Assembly (NCBI RefSeq): GCF_011742875.1
Contig: NZ_JAAQTL010000001.1
Location: 1,550,001-1,614,000, forward strand
Reading direction: 5' to 3'
From: Luteibacter yeojuensis
GTDB taxonomy: Bacteria; Pseudomonadota; Gammaproteobacteria; Xanthomonadales; Rhodanobacteraceae
Length of the DNA: 64,000 nt
Shown here: in pieces, positions 25,943 through 44,130 of the stretch
Position numbering within the stretch: the first letter of the stretch is position 1
Layout of the letters: each line of letters opens with the position of its first letter
Translations under genes and position numbers: made by a program
Notes under the pieces: model-generated
What the model was told of the DNA's origin: nothing
Database searches by the model: none
Seen by the model: only the letters and a program-made list of their open reading frames with translations

Positions 25943-27142
25943 ATGTCCTATCCCGGCCAGACCCGCTTCGCCAGCGAGCTCGACGCTATCCGCGAGCAGG
26001 GCCTGTTCAAGAACGAACGGGTCATCGTCTCGCCGCAATCGGCCGAGATCGAGCTGGAAGGAGGCCGCAAGGTCCTCAACTTCTGCGCGAACAACTACCT
26101 CGGCCTGGCCGATCACCCCGACGTGATCCAGGCCGCCAAGGAGGCCCTGGACACGCACGGCTTCGGCATGGCCAGCGTGCGCTTCATCTGCGGCACGCAG
26201 GACCTGCACAAGGCGCTCGAACGGAAGATCGCCGAGTTCTTCGGCACCGAGGACACCATCCTCTACGCCGCCTGCTTCGACGCCAACGGCGGCCTCTTCG
26301 AACCGCTGCTGGGCGAGGAGGATGCGGTCATCTCGGACGCGCTGAACCATGCGTCGATCATCGACGGCATCCGCCTGTGCAAGGCCAAGCGCTTCCGTTA
26401 CGCGAACTGCGACATGGCCGACCTCGAGGCCCAGCTGCAGGCCGCCGACGCCGCCGGCGCGCGCACCAAGCTCATCACCACCGACGGCGCGTTCTCGATG
26501 GACGGCTTCGTCGCCCCGCTCGACGAGATCACCGCGCTGGCGCGCAAGTACGGCGCGCTCGTGCACATCGACGAATGCCACTGCACCGGCTTCCTCGGCG
26601 AGACCGGCCGCGGTTCCGCCGAGCTGCACGGCGTGATGGACAAGATCGACATCTTCACCGGCACCTTGGGCAAGGCGCTCGGTGGCGCGCTGGGCGGCTT
26701 CACCACGGGGCGCCGCGAAGTGATCGAGATGCTGCGCCAGCGCTCGCGCCCGTACCTGTTCTCGAACTCGCTGCCGCCCCACGTGGTTGCGGCGGGCATC
26801 AAGGTGTTCGACATGCTCGCCGCCGCCGGCGAACTCCGCGAGAAGGTGAAGGAGAACACCCGCTACTTCCGCGAGAAAATGACCGAGGCCGGCTTCGACA
26901 TCCGTCCCGGCCAGCATCCGATCGTCCCGGTGATGATCTACGACGCCAAGCAGGCGCAGGCCATGGCGGCCGAATTGCTCGAGGAAGGCATCTACGTGAC
27001 GGGCTTCTTCTTCCCTGTCGTCCCGCAGGGCAAGGCGCGCATCCGCACGCAGATGAGCGCGGCGCATACGCGCGAGCACCTCGACCGTGCCATCGCGGCG
27101 TTCACCAAGGTCGGCAGGAAACTCGGCATCCTGAAAGCCTAA
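25943..27142 (+). CDS. kbl: Glycine C-acetyltransferase (2-amino-3-ketobutyrate CoA ligase)
   Basis: PLP enzyme that cleaves 2-amino-3-ketobutyrate with CoA to glycine and acetyl-CoA, completing threonine breakdown after Tdh. It has 399 residues. Seen: [39 protein letters not shown] (PLP-ring Asp/His region) and the Schiff-base lysine in [13 protein letters not shown]. Its TAA stop overlaps by three bases the stop of the convergent pseudouridine synthase gene. Confidence 0.97.
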
Positions 27143-38578: not shown

Positions 38579-39397
38579 TCAGTCCTTCTTCGCGGCCGTC
38601 AGCTTCTCCAGCGCCTTGCCGACCGCCGCGAAAGCGAACGCACCGGTGACGTGCGTCGCCGCGCCCAGGCCACCGCCGCAGTCGAGCTTGAGCGCATCGG
38701 CACCCGGCGGACGCACGCCGCAGACGCTGCCGTCCGCCTGCGGATACTGCACGTTCTGCAACGAATACACCGCGGAGACGCCGAAGAAGCGGTCTGGATT
38801 GCGCGGGAAGCCATGTTCCTGGCGGAGCTTCTTGCGGATCATGCTGAGCATCGCGTCGTGCTCCGTGCGCGAAAGGTCGCGCACGCGGACCTGGGTGGGA
38901 TCCGTGCGGCCGCCCGCGGCGCCCACGGTGACCAGGGGCAGCTTGCGTCGGCGGCACCAGACGATCGTCTCCAGCTTTACCTTCAGCGCATCGCAGGCGT
39001 CGATCACGACGTCGTAATGGCGATCCAGCAGATCGTCGAGGGTGGACGGCGTGAGGAAACGCTCGATGGCCTCGAGCCGGATCGTCGGGCTCACGGCGTG
39101 CATGCGCTCCGCCATGACGCCGACCTTCGGCTTGCCGTACTGCCCGTCCAGCGCGTGCAGCTGGCGGTTCGTGTTGGACAGGCAGACATCGTCGCCGTCG
39201 ATCAGGGTAAGCCGGCCGATGCCGCTGCGGGCCAGGGCCTCGGCGGCCCAGGAGCCCACGCCGCCCACGCCGATGACGCAGACGTGCGCATGCGCCAGCC
39301 GGTCGAGGCTGCCACGGCCATACAGGCGTTCGATGCCGGCGAAACGTTCGGCCTGGGCCGTGCTCACGGAAAACTCGCTGGAAACAGGGGCGTCCAT
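38579..39397 (-). CDS. tcdA: tRNA threonylcarbamoyladenosine dehydratase
   Basis: E1-like enzyme that cyclises t6A37 to ct6A in tRNA using ATP. It has 272 residues: Rossmann ATP-binding GVGGVGSWAAEALARSGIG, DGDDVCLSNTNRQ, the Arg/Lys/Asp set typical of ThiF-like proteins, and VIDACDALKVK. The C-terminal hydrophobic region (GAFAFAAVGKALEKL) matches TcdA. Divergent from the cytochrome c'-like gene. Confidence 0.93.
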   Translation of the reverse strand: MDAPVSSEFSVSTAQAERFAGIERLYGRGSLDRLAHAHVCVIGVGGVGSWAAEALARSGIGRLTLIDGDDVCLSNTNRQLHALDGQYGKPKVGVMAERMHAVSPTIRLEAIERFLTPSTLDDLLDRHYDVVIDACDALKVKLETIVWCRRRKLPLVTVGAAGGRTDPTQVRVRDLSRTEHDAMLSMIRKKLRQEHGFPRNPDRFFGVSAVYSLQNVQYPQADGSVCGVRPPGADALKLDCGGGLGAATHVTGAFAFAAVGKALEKLTAAKKD

Positions 39398-39462: not shown

Positions 39463-39852
39463 ATGCGCCCGCTGCTTCTCGTCATTCTTGGCCTCGTCGT
39501 GGGCGCGATGGGCGCCACGTTCGCCCTTTCGGCGCTGCGCCAGGGCACGCCATTCCACCGGGGCGTGATGGCCGTGATGCAGCACCACATGGGGGTTCTG
39601 CGCAGCAATGTGCGGGCCAGGCAGTGCGATGCCAAGGCCACGGCGAACCGCTTCTCGCGAATGCGCCAGGCGGCCGGCGATCTGCGCGAAGCCTTTCCCG
39701 ACATGGACGCATCCTTTTACGAGGCGGCCGGCCGGCTCGACCAGGCCCTCGACGGTGCGGCGGCGACGGCGCCCGCCACCTGCGAGGCGCTTGCCCGGGC
39801 GGTCGCCCCCGTCGGCGAGGCCTGCCAGGCCTGCCATCGCCAGTACCGATGA
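39463..39852 (+). CDS. Exported cytochrome c'-like protein
   Basis: A 129-residue protein: N-terminal membrane segment or uncleaved signal (about 3-24, PLLLVILGLVVGAMGATFAL), a helical domain, and a C-terminal haem-binding CQACH (Cys121-Cys124-His125). The layout of an early Met (VMAVM or HHM near 38-43) and a late CxxCH is that of the cytochrome c' four-helix bundle, a family that binds NO, CO or O2 or moves electrons. The protein faces the periplasm. Its stop overlaps the sensor-kinase ATG (ATGA), so the two are translated together, hinting at a link between haem chemistry and the sensor (inference). Confidence 0.72.
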   Translation: MRPLLLVILGLVVGAMGATFALSALRQGTPFHRGVMAVMQHHMGVLRSNVRARQCDAKATANRFSRMRQAAGDLREAFPDMDASFYEAAGRLDQALDGAAATAPATCEALARAVAPVGEACQACHRQYR

Positions 39853-41228
39853 ACGTCGCGGATCCGCACAAGCCGGCGCGCCCGCGTCAATTCTTCCGCA
39901 TGCAGCTATGGCTGCTTCTGCGGGCGTTCGCGCGCTTCGAAACCACCATGTTCCTGCGCACGCGGTACTCGCAGCCGAAGATGGTGGCGATCGGTGTCGT
40001 GGGCAGCTTCTGCCTCGCGGTGTACTACCCGGTCTGGGCGTATCTCTTTCCCCAGCCGTATGAAAATCTGCCGATGCGGCTGGTCTGCAGCGCCACCTTC
40101 ATTCCGCTGGCGTTGCTGCCGTGGTGGCCACGCCGCCTGCGCACCCACCTGCCGACCTACTGGTATTTCGCGATGACGGTGGCGATGCCGTTCTTCGTGG
40201 GCTACATGACGCTGCGCAACGCCACGCCCGCATGGCTGATGACCCATCTCGCCTGCGTGATGCTGCTGATGATGCTGTTCGACATTGCCAGCTTCCTCGT
40301 GGTGTTCAGCATCGGCAGCCTGCTGGCCGGGCTGGTGTTCGCCCTCTCCCCCGAGGCGCACCTGCAGACGCGGACGATGCTCGAATACATCCCCCTCCTC
40401 TTGTTCGGCATGGTCGGCGGCGCCACCTGCACCGTCTCCTCGAACATGGCCGAGCAGTCGCGCATCGACGCGCTCACCGCCGCCTCGAACAACATCGCCC
40501 ACGAACTGCGCACGCCGCTGGGCTCCCTGCGCATCGCCGCGCGCGCCGTGGCCCGTTTCATGCCGGACCTGATCCGCAGCCACCGGCTGGCCGAGCATGA
40601 AGGGCTGGCCGTACCCGAGGTGCGGGCGCAGAACCTGCACGCGCTGGAGCGCAGCATCGGCGTGATGGAGCGCGAGGTCACCTACGCCAACACCATCATC
40701 GACATGCTGCTGCTCTCGGCCCGGCCGATCGGCGAGGTGCCCCTGACGCTGCTGGCCGCGCGCGAGTGCGTGGAACAGGCGCTTCGGCGGTTTCCCTACG
40801 GTTCACGGGCGGAGCGCGAACGTATCACCCTGTCGCCCACGGGCGATTTCCCCCTCCTGGGCGAGGAAGCGCTGGTGGTCCACATCCTGTTCAACCTGCT
40901 GCGCAACGCCCTCTTCCATACCGACCGGGCCGGCAAGGGCGACATCCAGGTGTTCGTCGAGCCCGGCGAACAGGCCAACCGGATCCGCGTCCACGACACC
41001 GGTCCGGGGATTCCCCCGGACGTGGTGCCCCGGATCTTCAACCGCTTCTATTCCTACGCCAGCGACAGCGCAGGGGCCGGTACCGTGACCGGCCTGGGAA
41101 TAGGACTCGCTTTTTGTCGCGCGGCGATGGAGCATATGGGCGGTGGCATCGCATGCCGTACCAATCTGGGCGAATTCACGGAGTTCACCCTCACCTTCCC
41201 GCATCCGGAGACCGGGGACCGGCAGTGA
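39849..41228 (+). CDS. lqsS: CqsS/LqsS-like six-TM sensor histidine kinase
   Basis: Membrane histidine kinase of 459 residues. Six hydrophobic segments in residues about 46-195 form the sensor region, which carries RYSQPKMVAIGVVGSF, YYPVWAYLFPQPYENLPMRL and related features that match the CAI-1-sensing domain of CqsS-type kinases. Then H-box NNIAHELRTPLGS (His218), N-box FNLLRNALFH, G1 DTGPGIPPD, F-box FNRFYSY and G2 GLGIGLAF. Unlike Vibrio CqsS there is no attached receiver; the receiver is the next gene, as for Legionella LqsS. By analogy it should switch between kinase and phosphatase when an alpha-hydroxyketone binds. It is coupled to the genes on both sides. The symbol follows Legionella naming. 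Confidence 0.88.
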   Translation: MNVADPHKPARPRQFFRMQLWLLLRAFARFETTMFLRTRYSQPKMVAIGVVGSFCLAVYYPVWAYLFPQPYENLPMRLVCSATFIPLALLPWWPRRLRTHLPTYWYFAMTVAMPFFVGYMTLRNATPAWLMTHLACVMLLMMLFDIASFLVVFSIGSLLAGLVFALSPEAHLQTRTMLEYIPLLLFGMVGGATCTVSSNMAEQSRIDALTAASNNIAHELRTPLGSLRIAARAVARFMPDLIRSHRLAEHEGLAVPEVRAQNLHALERSIGVMEREVTYANTIIDMLLLSARPIGEVPLTLLAARECVEQALRRFPYGSRAERERITLSPTGDFPLLGEEALVVHILFNLLRNALFHTDRAGKGDIQVFVEPGEQANRIRVHDTGPGIPPDVVPRIFNRFYSYASDSAGAGTVTGLGIGLAFCRAAMEHMGGGIACRTNLGEFTEFTLTFPHPETGDRQ

Positions 41229-42265
41229 TGACGTTGAGCTCGCAGGGCGATATCCAGCCTTTCCATTTCCCGACCACCACGGTGCTCGTCGACGACCACG
41301 AGGAGTACCTCGAGGTCGTGCCGTTGCTGCTCGACCCGATGATGCGCGTGCGCACGTTCAGTTCGCCACGCAGCGCCCTCGCCACGCTCGGCAACAACGG
41401 CAGCCGCCCCGTGCCCGGCGGCGGCTGGCTGTACCGCTGGAAGGACCGCCCCTCCGAGACGCAGGAGCTGGTGGCGCTCGACATCGACTCCATCCACCGG
41501 GTGGTGTACGACCCCGAGCGCTTCGCCGAGATTTCGGTGGTCGTGGTGGACCAGGCCATGCCGGAGATGGACGGCATCACCTTCTGCAAGCGCCTGCCCA
41601 ACCCGCATATCGGCAAGATCCTCCTCACCGGCCGCGCCGACGACGCGACGGCGATCGACGCCTTCAACTCGGGCGTGATCGACCGCTTCATCCGCAAGAA
41701 CGATCCCGCCGCCATCGAGAAGCTGCAGACGGCGATCACCGAGCTCCAGCACCGCTATTTCGAGCGCGCCAGCGCGTTCGTGGCCGAGACCCTGGCCCTG
41801 GGCAATTTCCGCTTCCTGCGCGACCCCGCCTTCCGCGAGGTGCTGCAATCGGTCACGGCCACTTTCCAGCCTGTGGAGTGCTACGTCCACTGCAATCCCA
41901 CCGGCCTCCTGCTGGTGGATGCCTGGGGTATCGGGCGTTTTCTCCTCGTCCAGACGGACGAGGACCTCCGCACCCACTATGAAATTGCGGCAGATCTGGG
42001 CGCGCCGCCGGCCGTGCTGGAGGCGCTGCGCAGGGGTACAGCCCTGCCCTGGTTCAATTCGCGCGACGGCTTCTACCACAAGGGCGTGGCGGACCCGGAG
42101 TCGCAGCTCCACGCGGCCACCGCGGTCTCCGGCGAGCAGTGGTATTACTACGCCCTCATCGACGATGTGCAGCGTTTCCGTCTGCAGCACGTCAAGTCCT
42201 ACCGTGCCTGGCTGCGCGAGCAGGACCTCAGTCTGGCCGCCGACAGCAGGTCGCGGTTCATCTGA
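41228..42265 (+). CDS. lqsR: LqsR-like response regulator with unusual output domain
   Basis: A 345-residue response regulator. The receiver (about 16-165) has acidic pocket DD at 22-23, phospho-acceptor Asp108 in VVVVDQAMPEMDG, Thr134 in LLTGRA and Lys157. An insertion of about 45 residues between the first helix and the Asp108 strand (residues 55-100) sets it apart from normal receivers. The C-terminal half (about 165-345) has no HTH, GGDEF, EAL or HD motif that I can see; it includes FRDPAFREVLQ, CYVHCNPTGLLLVDAWG and WYYYALIDDVQRFRLQH. LqsR of Legionella has a similar layout (family knowledge). The start overlaps the kinase stop (TGATG). Confidence 0.82.
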   Translation: MTLSSQGDIQPFHFPTTTVLVDDHEEYLEVVPLLLDPMMRVRTFSSPRSALATLGNNGSRPVPGGGWLYRWKDRPSETQELVALDIDSIHRVVYDPERFAEISVVVVDQAMPEMDGITFCKRLPNPHIGKILLTGRADDATAIDAFNSGVIDRFIRKNDPAAIEKLQTAITELQHRYFERASAFVAETLALGNFRFLRDPAFREVLQSVTATFQPVECYVHCNPTGLLLVDAWGIGRFLLVQTDEDLRTHYEIAADLGAPPAVLEALRRGTALPWFNSRDGFYHKGVADPESQLHAATAVSGEQWYYYALIDDVQRFRLQHVKSYRAWLREQDLSLAADSRSRFI

Positions 42266-42540
42266 CCGCTCTCAAGGCTTCGCGATTCCCAAGCAAGCGC
42301 ACCACCCGTTCCGGACCCTCCGGTGCGCAAGGTTCGCGTTGCCTGGAAAAAACTCGTTCGGACGACACGGTCCGCACAACGTCTCTCTGTTAATGGCTTG
42401 AGGGGCGGGGGTCCCACGGGACTCCCGGCAATGCCCTCCCTCCCGATTACGCGCCTGCCAGGGCGAGGCCGGCGCGCGCGCCGTCACGACTGGCGGTGGC
42501 GCGGATTCGCCCGTCCCTTGACCAGAGAGAGAGATGATCC
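42266..42540. promoter_or_regulatory. Leader/promoter region of the autoinducer synthase gene
   Basis: 275 gene-free bases between the response regulator and the synthase. Seen: GCGCACC/GGTGCGC inverted arms (42297-42303 and 42322-42328), a short A-run at 42347-42352, CGGAC-6 bases-GTCCG near 42359, a hairpin GGGGGTCCC-AC-GGGACTCCC at 42407-42426, and GAGAGAGA as ribosome-binding sequence just before 42541. A separate promoter or RNA-level control of synthase expression is likely. No exact -35/-10 pair found. Confidence 0.5.
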
Positions 42541-43806
42541 ATGGAAAACGTTTCCATCCTGCACCCGATCGCCAAGGCACCGGCACTCCCGGACTTCGTC
42601 ACGCGTAGGGTCGACCGATTTCACAACGAACGCGTGGCCGTCGATTGGGGCGGACGTCACATTTTGAGGGGACGGCGTCCAGGCGCCGGCGACCTCATGC
42701 TGCAGAGCAACGACTACCTCGCCATCGCCGGCCATGCGGCCATCGTGGAGGCCCAGCGGGAGGCCCTGGCGCGAGGCGGGCTCGGCATGATGATGTCCGC
42801 GCTGTTCCAGCAGGACGAAGGCCAGCCGCTGCATCGCGTCGAGGCCGAACTGGCCCGGGCCGTCGGCAGCGAGGACGGCATCCTCGCCCAGTCGGGCTTC
42901 GCCGCCAACGTGGGCCTGATCCAGTCCATCGCCGGGGAGCGCGTGCCGGTGTACATCGACATGCTCGCCCACGCCTCTCTCTGGGAGGGTATCCGCAGTG
43001 CGGGCGCCAAGGCCGTATCGGTCCTGCACAACGATATGGCCCACCTGGAGCGGCAGGTGCTGCGCAACGGTCCGGGCGTCATCGTCGTCGACGCCGTGTA
43101 CAGCACCAACGGCAGCCTCGCACCGCTCGTGGAGATCGCCGACATCGCACAGGCCCAAGGCTGCGTGCTGGTGGTGGACGAATCCCATTCGCTCGGCACG
43201 CACGGCCAACGCGGCGAGGGCCTCGTCGCCGCCCTGGGCCTCAACGACCGCGTGCACTTCGTGACCGCCAGCCTGGCGAAGGCCTATTGCTCGCGCGCGG
43301 GCTTCATCGCATGCACCACCCGCTTCAAGGATTATTTCGGCTGCGAGGCGTTGCCCGCGATCTTCAGTTCCTCGCTGCTGCCGCACGAACTGGCCGGTCT
43401 CTCCGCGTCGCATCGGGTCATCCAGACGGAGGGCTGGCGGCGCCAGCGCCTGCGCGCGGTCACCCGCCACGTCCGCGGCGAGCTTGCCGCCATGGGGTAT
43501 CCCATCGGCGACGGCACCGAGCAGATCGTCGCCTTCGAGGCCGGGCAGGAGATCCTCACCGGCCGGGTGCGCGACGTTATGGAACGGCACGGCGTGTTCG
43601 GCTCGGTGTTCAGCGCGCCGGCGACGACGGTCAGTCGCTCGCTCCTGCGCCTCACGCTCAACGCGGGAATGAGCGATACCGACGTGGAGCGGCTGCTGGA
43701 GGTGTGCCGCCAGGCGCGCGACGAGATGGACCTGGACGCCTGGAGCGCCTCGCGGCGGGCGCAGCGCGACGCGGGCCGGCAGCCGGTATCGGCCGAAGTG
43801 GCGTGA
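42541..43806 (+). CDS. cqsA: Alpha-hydroxyketone autoinducer synthase, CqsA/LqsA family
   Basis: PLP-dependent acyltransferase of 421 residues. CqsA-type enzymes join an acyl-CoA to an amino-acid-derived unit to make CAI-1/LAI-1-type (alpha-hydroxy- or amino-) ketone signals. Seen: LMLQSNDYLAIAGH, AHASLWEGIRSA, VIVVDAVYSTNG, VVDESHSLGTHG (PLP Asp213, His216), the Schiff-base lysine in TASLAKAYCSRAG (Lys247), PAIFSSSLLPHE and HGVFGSVFSAPATT. These last motifs differ from kbl, also in this window, and match CqsA as I remember it. Located directly after a CqsS/LqsS-type kinase and its regulator. The exact acyl chain and signal cannot be read from sequence. Confidence 0.9.
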   Translation: MENVSILHPIAKAPALPDFVTRRVDRFHNERVAVDWGGRHILRGRRPGAGDLMLQSNDYLAIAGHAAIVEAQREALARGGLGMMMSALFQQDEGQPLHRVEAELARAVGSEDGILAQSGFAANVGLIQSIAGERVPVYIDMLAHASLWEGIRSAGAKAVSVLHNDMAHLERQVLRNGPGVIVVDAVYSTNGSLAPLVEIADIAQAQGCVLVVDESHSLGTHGQRGEGLVAALGLNDRVHFVTASLAKAYCSRAGFIACTTRFKDYFGCEALPAIFSSSLLPHELAGLSASHRVIQTEGWRRQRLRAVTRHVRGELAAMGYPIGDGTEQIVAFEAGQEILTGRVRDVMERHGVFGSVFSAPATTVSRSLLRLTLNAGMSDTDVERLLEVCRQARDEMDLDAWSASRRAQRDAGRQPVSAEVA

Positions 43807-43824: not shown

Positions 43825-44130
43825 TCAACGCAAGGAGACGCGCCCGCGCAGGATGTCCCGGAACATCGCCCAATCGCCCATCAGGCTGTAGACCGGGTGT
43901 CGGAACGTGGCGGGCCGGTTCTTCTCGAAGACGAAATGGCCGACCCACGCGAAACCGTAACCGCCGACCAGGGCCAGCAGCAGCCACCACGGTTCTCCCG
44001 TGGCGACGAGCATGCCCAGGGCAAACAGCACGACCCAGCTCCCGGCGAAATGCATTCGGCGGCAACGGACGTCCGCGTGCTCGCCCAGGTAGTAAGGATA
44101 GAACTCGCGAAAACTGCCGAAGCCTGCCAT
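43825..44130 (-). CDS. DUF962 / Mpo1-like membrane protein
   Basis: A 101-residue protein with two hydrophobic segments (about 33-44 and 49-63) and the DUF962 hallmarks FREFYPYYLGEHADVRCRRMHFAGS and GYGFAWVGHFVFEKNRPATFRHPVYSLMGDWAMF, with conserved His residues. The yeast relative Mpo1 is an iron-dependent dioxygenase for alpha-oxidation of 2-hydroxy fatty acids; whether the bacterial proteins share that reaction is not known to me. It is convergent with the autoinducer synthase, 18 bases from its stop. Confidence 0.82.
   Translation of the reverse strand: MAGFGSFREFYPYYLGEHADVRCRRMHFAGSWVVLFALGMLVATGEPWWLLLALVGGYGFAWVGHFVFEKNRPATFRHPVYSLMGDWAMFRDILRGRVSLR

What the first reader, a model, noticed from the sequence alone, without database searches (positions are those of the whole stretch)
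39463..43806. Complete alpha-hydroxyketone quorum-sensing locus (Cqs/Lqs/Jqs type) in a Xanthomonadales-like genome
Four genes in one direction: cytochrome c'-like, six-TM histidine kinase, LqsR-like regulator and CqsA-type synthase. The first three are joined by ATGA or TGATG overlaps. The synthase carries CqsA-specific blocks (AHASLWEG, VDESHSLGTHG, PAIFSSSLLPHE, HGVFGSVFSAPATT) and the kinase has a CqsS-like sensor segment ending in PQPYENLPMRL. Established knowledge: AHK systems are known from Vibrio (CqsA/CqsS), Legionella (LqsA/S/R) and Janthinobacterium (JqsA/S/R); this order is known as DSF/Rpf signallers. The gene order sensor-regulator-synthase with a haem protein in front is, to my knowledge, not a described arrangement.
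Basis: partly seen in the sequence, partly recalled or inferred. Interest (0 to 1): 0.9.

Follow-up and report, generated by a model that had tools for sequence, protein, structure and literature searches.

The report
Luteibacter alpha-hydroxyketone quorum-sensing gene cluster
A soil bacterium of the genus Luteibacter carries the sensor, regulator and synthase of a known chemical signalling system; the haem protein gene in front is probably an older neighbour, and two related genera have kept the sensor pair but no synthase.

Summary
In detail: window 39849-43806 holds an intact histidine kinase, response regulator and synthase on one strand, with a cytochrome c'-like gene (39463-39852) in front. 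The synthase is an alpha-hydroxyketone (AHK) synthase: NCBIfam NF005526 538.9 bits (cut-off 428), V. cholerae CqsA 336.6 bits against 138 for the next enzyme, inside the AHK clade of a tree. The regulator matches Legionella LqsR over its full length (6SY9). The sensor resembles CqsS. The synthase passes the cut-off in 34 of 233 Rhodanobacteraceae genomes, 23 of 23 in this genus.

The haem gene is probably not part of the system. It occurs in 207 of 233 family genomes. In 15 of 20 loci that I picked from genomes without such a synthase it lies within 160 bases of the Mpo1-like (DUF962) gene, with no room for the trio. Ten genomes of two genera keep sensor and regulator in that slot without a synthase. 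Their kinase motifs are intact, but a ligand-pocket Phe that all 26 synthase-linked sensors share is Leu or Met. New member of a known kind, with a testable evolutionary twist. Function is inferred; no signal has been measured.

The parts
39463..39852 (+). membrane-anchored cytochrome c'/c-556-like protein, 129 aa (CQACH haem motif); resident neighbour, probably not a dedicated part of the system
   Evidence: Pfam Cytochrom_C_2 35.1 bits, cut-off 26.5; AF2 model pLDDT 89.0, one N-terminal helix plus four-helix bundle; top PDB folds cytochromes c', though none at E <= 0.001; profile hits in 207 of 233 family genomes
39849..41228 (+). LqsS/CqsS-type sensor histidine kinase, 459 aa, no receiver domain found
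   Evidence: HATPase_c 80.3 bits; HisKA 23.3 bits, below its cut-off of 26.9; sensor-only profile of the family hits Vibrio and Vibrio-like CqsS-type kinases at 106-115 bits; W129, T132, F186, C194 align with V. cholerae W104, S107, F162, C170
41228..42265 (+). LqsR-family response regulator, 345 aa (D108 phospho-acceptor, D22/D23, T134, K157)
   Evidence: phmmer to LqsR 6SY9 167.5 bits over residues 9-334; AF2 model pLDDT 91.8, Foldseek to 6SY9 E 4.6e-28; receiver residues invariant in 56 aligned sequences
42266..42540 (+). leader between regulator and synthase; possible stem-loop at 42451-42475 with core GGGCGAGG at 42461-42468
   Evidence: core 72-87 nt upstream of cqsA in 13 of 13 Luteibacter loci looked at; 87.7% of stem cells paired, mixed controls
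42541..43806 (+). CqsA/LqsA-type alpha-hydroxyketone synthase, 421 aa (PLP lysine K247)
   Evidence: NCBIfam NF005526 538.9 bits, cut-off 428; V. cholerae CqsA 336.6 bits; tree; pocket mapping
38579..39397 (-). flanking TcdA-like gene, left border of the locus
   Evidence: NF011696 TcdA 300.2 bits, just under its cut-off of 304; within 750 bases of the cytochrome gene in 18 of 20 loci examined in genomes without a CqsA above the cut-off
43825..44130 (-). flanking Mpo1-like gene (PF06127, DUF962 by recall), right border of the slot
   Evidence: PF06127 132.3 bits; within 160 bases of the cytochrome gene in 15 of 20 such loci

Best explanation
A complete AHK quorum-sensing system of the Lqs/Jqs type. 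Inferred mechanism: CqsA condenses a medium-chain acyl-CoA with an amino-acid-derived substrate (S-adenosylmethionine in Vibrio) into an AHK-type signal. The membrane kinase binds it and changes the phosphorylation of the LqsR-type regulator at D108, whose output domain (described in print as diguanylate-cyclase-like) acts by a step that is still unknown. The trio sits in one slot of a TcdA-like / cytochrome c' / Mpo1-like / pirin locus. The cytochrome is a neighbour that may be co-transcribed but is not required by the system. Shown here: homology, intact catalytic residues, conserved linkage, slot. Inferred: signal, binding, phosphotransfer, regulon.
For: Synthase over the curated cut-off and inside the AHK clade with SH-aLRT 100, with this genome's own Kbl (TIGR01822 731.8 bits) and a second related enzyme (L003) in the outgroup. 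PLP lysine K236 and pocket residues H30, F79, I263, F264, P348, A349 of V. cholerae CqsA kept. LqsR match over full length. Sensor-domain similarity to CqsS; W104 and F162 equivalents kept, and the C170 equivalent is Cys as in V. cholerae. Kinase, regulator and synthase lie together in each family genome where the contig allowed a look, except G225, where the cluster is split between contigs. Ligand-pocket change where the synthase is missing suggests that sensor and synthase are matched.
Against: No signal, binding or phosphotransfer has been measured. S107, Ser in 19 of 19 sensors outside the family, is Thr here, and pocket residues V32, F257 and C346 differ (L42, C268, S358), so the ligand may not be a known AHK. 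The PhcX paper says that no diguanylate cyclase activity was detected for LqsR (PMC10653808, passages), so the output step is unknown.
Confidence: 0.88

Rival explanations
1. The cytochrome c' is a dedicated haem/redox or NO co-sensor that tunes the AHK kinase, so the four genes form one haem-linked quorum-sensing unit.
For: Cytochrome in front of the kinase in 31 of 33 assessable family genomes with the synthase; membrane anchor and cytochrome c' fold; an accessory haem-binding protein acting on a membrane-embedded redox sensor (SenS) is described in PMC8396549 (passages); NO signalling and Lqs are linked in Legionella (PMC11237717, passages).
Against: The same gene rings in 207 of 233 family genomes, most of them without the synthase; in 20 such loci the Met, extra Cys pair and CXXCH are there by eye. 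The trio exists without it in G107 and G139. No cytochrome hit in 25 of 25 loci outside the family, 20 of which have a kinase of this type in view.
Confidence: 0.1
2. The synthase is a housekeeping alpha-oxoamine synthase (Kbl, BioF, serine palmitoyltransferase or ALAS) next to an unrelated two-component pair.
For: Same fold family; Pfam only says Aminotran_1_2.
Against: Kbl is a separate gene at window 25943-27142 (TIGR01822 731.8 bits, cut-off 493; NF005526 only 178), and a further related enzyme (L003, type not tested, beside a biotin-synthase-like ORF by recall) is elsewhere; both fall in the outgroup. NF005526 is far over its cut-off here while the bioF, Kbl, serine palmitoyltransferase and ALAS models are below theirs; linkage to LqsS/LqsR-type genes.
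Confidence: 0.03
3. The cluster is an AHK system in which the synthase now makes, and the kinase senses, a variant ligand outside CAI-1/LAI-1. (A refinement of the best explanation, not exclusive of it.)
For: Thr at S107 in 24 of 24 aligned Luteibacter, Pinirhizobacter and Oleiagrimonas rows, Ser in 19 of 19 outside the family; gatekeeper F160/F162/F166 positions read L184/F186/G190 (read off the alignment); CqsA F257 to Cys, V32 to Leu, C346 to Ser.
Against: W104, F162 and C170 equivalents are as in V. cholerae; Cys at 170 goes with relaxed C10/C8 tail acceptance there (PMC3376566 section 11).
Confidence: 0.35

Closest known systems
Jqs system of Janthinobacterium sp. HH01 (JqsA/JqsS/JqsR), PMC3566124
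   Same: AHK-type synthase, sensor kinase and LqsR-type regulator in one cluster of a non-pathogen (passages)
   Different: Betaproteobacterium. Direct comparison with HH01 was not made, as its record was not fetched
Lqs system of Legionella pneumophila, PMC3376566 and PMC5289986
   Same: LqsR-family regulator with full-length match; sensor of the same class
   Different: Cluster lqsA-lqsR-hdeD-lqsS with hdeD in it (passages); S111 in place of W104, and S114 where Luteibacter has Thr (section 11)
Cqs system of Vibrio
   Same: CqsA at 336.6 bits; sensor-domain similarity; W104, F162 and C170 equivalents
   Different: In the 8 Vibrio or Vibrio-like (f194, name inferred) loci the kinase ORFs are 681-729 aa, no LqsR hit lies beside them, and synthase and kinase converge
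PhcX of Ralstonia (LqsR family), PMC10653808
   Same: LqsR-family regulator that can persist without lqsA (passages)
   Different: There the regulator is linked to the Phc system; here ten genomes keep kinase and regulator together in the original slot

Membership tests
AHK autoinducer synthase (CqsA/LqsA/JqsA) | scores above the curated family cut-off and above sister enzymes | tested here: met
   538.9 bits, cut-off 428; bioF 229.6, cut-off 426.45
AHK autoinducer synthase (CqsA/LqsA/JqsA) | falls in the AHK clade, not with Kbl and other oxoamine synthases | tested here: met
   43 AHK rows on one side of a branch with SH-aLRT 100 against 17 outgroup rows (quick method, long branches flagged)
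AHK autoinducer synthase (CqsA/LqsA/JqsA) | PLP lysine and acyl-pocket residues of V. cholerae CqsA | tested here: met
   K236 kept; 6 of 9 pocket residues identical, V32L, F257C, C346S (pocket list from PMC3285556 passages)
AHK autoinducer synthase (CqsA/LqsA/JqsA) | makes an AHK or amino-enone signal | not testable with these tools
   needs LC-MS
CqsS/LqsS sensor kinase | sensor domain homologous to CqsS | tested here: met
   family sensor-only profile finds 19 of 19 kinases of AHK loci outside the family; 106-115 bits for the 7 Vibrio or Vibrio-like ones, 34 bits for the weakest
CqsS/LqsS sensor kinase | six transmembrane helices | tested here: inconclusive
   hydropathy scan passed its threshold at four places; alignment with CqsS consistent with six
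CqsS/LqsS sensor kinase | W104 and F162 ligand-contact equivalents | tested here: met
   W129 and F186; the third such position, S107, a specificity residue, is Thr in this genus
LqsR response regulator | full-length match and receiver residues | tested here: met
LqsR response regulator | phosphorylated by the cognate kinase | not testable with these tools
   needs a phosphotransfer assay
Cytochrome c' (class II c-type) | C-terminal CXXCH and four-helix bundle | tested here: met
   Pfam hit and motif; model and fold search (no Foldseek match at E <= 0.001, and helical bundles match easily)
Cytochrome c' (class II c-type) | high-spin, five-coordinate, NO-binding haem | not testable with these tools
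   an invariant Met36 may be a sixth ligand, as in c-556 (recalled); needs spectroscopy

The most novel reading that the evidence does not exclude
Two Rhodanobacteraceae genera descend from an ancestor with the full AHK system, lost the synthase once, and kept the sensor-regulator pair in the same slot with an intact kinase but a rebuilt ligand pocket (F162 to Leu/Met, S107 to Ala/Ile, 170 to Ala). They would be AHK receptor solos that listen to others or to a new ligand, a natural experiment on how a quorum-sensing receptor changes once its own signal is gone.
Probability: 0.4. Interest if true: 0.65.

Novelty: new member of a known kind. Interest (0 to 1): 0.5.

Why it matters
It adds a genus in which all 23 genomes held carry an AHK synthase, useful for finding what LqsR-type regulators do. 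Within one family and one slot there are full systems with Cys, Phe or Ser at the tail-length position, receptor-only systems and empty sites. That makes ligand specificity and the loss of a signal testable by comparison and by simple gene exchange.
Full report
What is there. On the + strand the window has a cytochrome c'-like gene (39463-39852), a histidine kinase (39849-41228), a response regulator (41228-42265) and a PLP enzyme (42541-43806), all open and intact. The window is G000:C1:1550001-1614000. Other genus names used below for coded genomes (g25 Tahibacter, g18 Mizugakiibacter, g20 Pinirhizobacter, G142 in g19 Oleiagrimonas) are likewise inferred from equal contig lengths. g7 and g12 could not be named. 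Family code f194 is called Vibrio-like from its place in the trees, not from a name.

Synthase. NCBIfam names it an AHK autoinducer synthase with 538.9 bits against a cut-off of 428; the sister models (bioF, glycine C-acetyltransferase, serine palmitoyltransferase, ALAS) are below theirs. In the PDB sequences V. cholerae CqsA scores 336.6 bits and the next enzyme 138. In a tree of 60 rows, 43 AHK-type rows are one side of a branch with support 100, opposite 17 outgroup rows that include this genome's own Kbl (checked) and one further related enzyme, L003; all 18 Rhodanobacteraceae rows form one group (99) (quick method, several long branches flagged). The PLP lysine K236 and six of nine acyl-pocket residues of V. 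cholerae CqsA are kept; V32, F257 and C346 are Leu, Cys and Ser (the pocket list is from PMC3285556, passages read).

Regulator. The best PDB sequence match is Legionella LqsR 6SY9, 167.5 bits over residues 9-334; the next, 31.6 bits, covers the receiver only. A model (pLDDT 91.8) matches 6SY9 at E 4.6e-28; the next row has E 1.4e-8, and the other rows shown cover part of the model or fit with large rmsd. D22, D23, D108, T134 and K157 are invariant in 56 sequences. The literature calls the output domain diguanylate-cyclase-like but without detected activity (PMC10653808, passages), so the output is open.

Sensor. A profile made from the sensor part of seven family kinases finds 19 of 19 kinases taken from AHK loci outside the family, the 7 Vibrio or Vibrio-like ones at 106-115 bits, the weakest at 34 bits. 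By alignment V. cholerae W104, S107, F162 and C170 correspond to W129, T132, F186 and C194; the register is checked by V. harveyi F175, which falls at residue 175 of the V. campbellii ORF. C170 sets tail length in Vibrio (PMC3285556, passages; PMC3376566 section 11). In the family, 24 of 24 aligned Luteibacter, Pinirhizobacter and Oleiagrimonas rows (the window included) have Cys, 6 of 6 Tahibacter have Phe and 2 of 2 Mizugakiibacter have Ser (some named and coded rows are the same genomes, so the count of independent sensors is smaller). At 107 the first group has Thr, the other eight Ser, and 19 of 19 sensors outside the family Ser. W104 is kept in 18 of those 19. This predicts a relaxed C10-like tail in Luteibacter, a shorter one in Tahibacter, and a changed head-group contact in Luteibacter.

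Distribution. Over the family's genomes, NF005526 passes its cut-off in 34 of 233: 23 of 23 in this genus, g18 2 of 2, g19 1 of 5, g20 1 of 1, g25 7 of 8 (the eighth, G230, has a fragment) (its control of 14 genomes passed the cut-off in 0). In an order sample 28 of 398, all in this family; in a class sample 8 of 369; in a phylum sample 16 of 398; each sample includes the window's own genome. In the protein search (120 best of 3346 listed) NCBI names label Luteibacter, Tahibacter, Oleiagrimonas and Mizugakiibacter proteins as AHK-type synthases.

Receptor-only clade. The regulator is found in 49 of 233 family genomes at E up to 1e-40: 35 with a synthase or its fragment, 10 without one above the cut-off (g7 4 of 4, g12 6 of 6) and 4 distant copies (35-36% identity). 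All ten have kinase and regulator between cytochrome and Mpo1-like gene; in the g7 loci there is a further 1.8 kb before the Mpo1-like gene, which in L231 holds a 574-aa ORF (the other three were not read there). H, N and G boxes are intact, but F162 is Leu or Met in 10 of 10, S107 Ala or Ile, and 170 Ala, while F162 is Phe in all 19 outside sensors and all 7 family representatives. In a kinase-plus-regulator tree of 37 rows the ten are one clade (100) within the full systems: joined with the Luteibacter, Pinirhizobacter and Oleiagrimonas group (100), with Mizugakiibacter (86) and Tahibacter outside. The simplest reading is one loss of the synthase. Caveats: quick tree with long outgroup branches, one event, and exchange between genera through the flanks is not excluded.

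Gene order. In 8 loci outside the family with both kinase and regulator, the pair converges on the synthase in 6, diverges in 1 and is co-directional in 1 (L154). The family's co-directional order is thus uncommon in this small sample but not unique.

Leader. Between regulator and synthase the sequence is poorly conserved except for a possible stem-loop with an invariant GGGCGAGG, 72-87 nt before the synthase in the 13 of 13 Luteibacter loci looked at; the Pinirhizobacter row lacks that exact core. On 12 sequences 87.7% of stem cells pair (shuffles 83.5, sd 1.5, none as high), 8 cells change on both sides (shuffles 3.9, none as high), the covariation score is 0.266 (0.193, none as high), and slid versions pair at 58.5% or less. 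Against it: the number of pairs with a two-sided change (3) is reached by 188 of 500 shuffles and the number of pair types by 309 of 500; one of the nine pairs fails in 5 of 10 sequences; and the stem was drawn from these sequences. The window's copy is the only exact match to its pattern in the genome; the six others have three mismatches, the reversed control has one match. It may be a control element of synthase expression, or an operator.

Verdict. A real, conserved AHK quorum-sensing system in a genus where I found no printed work on it; new member of a known kind. The best reason to look further is the single-slot series of full, receptor-only and empty states with matching pocket changes.

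Noticed in passing
window 42451-42475 (core 42461-42468): Possible stem-loop with invariant GGGCGAGG in the leader of the synthase, 13 of 13 Luteibacter loci looked at; covariation controls are mixed; unique exact match in the genome.
   Followed up: partly
L125:7974-9188 (G109) and L124:7947-9227 (G119): Two Luteibacter genomes carry a second, solitary AHK-type synthase over the family cut-off (470.4 and 482.7 bits) without kinase or regulator hit nearby; both branch within the family clade on long branches.
   Followed up: partly
L250, L251, L252 (G060, G155, G088); also G059: Distant LqsS/LqsR-like pairs (about 35% identity) in genomes without a synthase above the cut-off. Three were read; L250 has a SNase-like and L251 a RecJ-like gene nearby, perhaps a mobile block. 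Pocket residues W/T/F/C in two, W/Y/F/C in one.
   Followed up: partly
L120 and L205 (G225): In one Tahibacter genome the cluster is split inside the regulator gene over two contigs, with unrelated genes at one side: rearrangement, insertion or assembly break.
   Followed up: partly
window 25943-27142: Kbl (glycine C-acetyltransferase, TIGR01822 731.8 bits) gene in the same window, a paralogue that served as internal outgroup.
   Followed up: yes
protein search list (P0049, P0072, P0095): AHK-type synthases of this family type carry names of Bacillus, Paenarthrobacter and Microbacterium in NCBI, probably mislabelled or contaminated assemblies.
   Followed up: no
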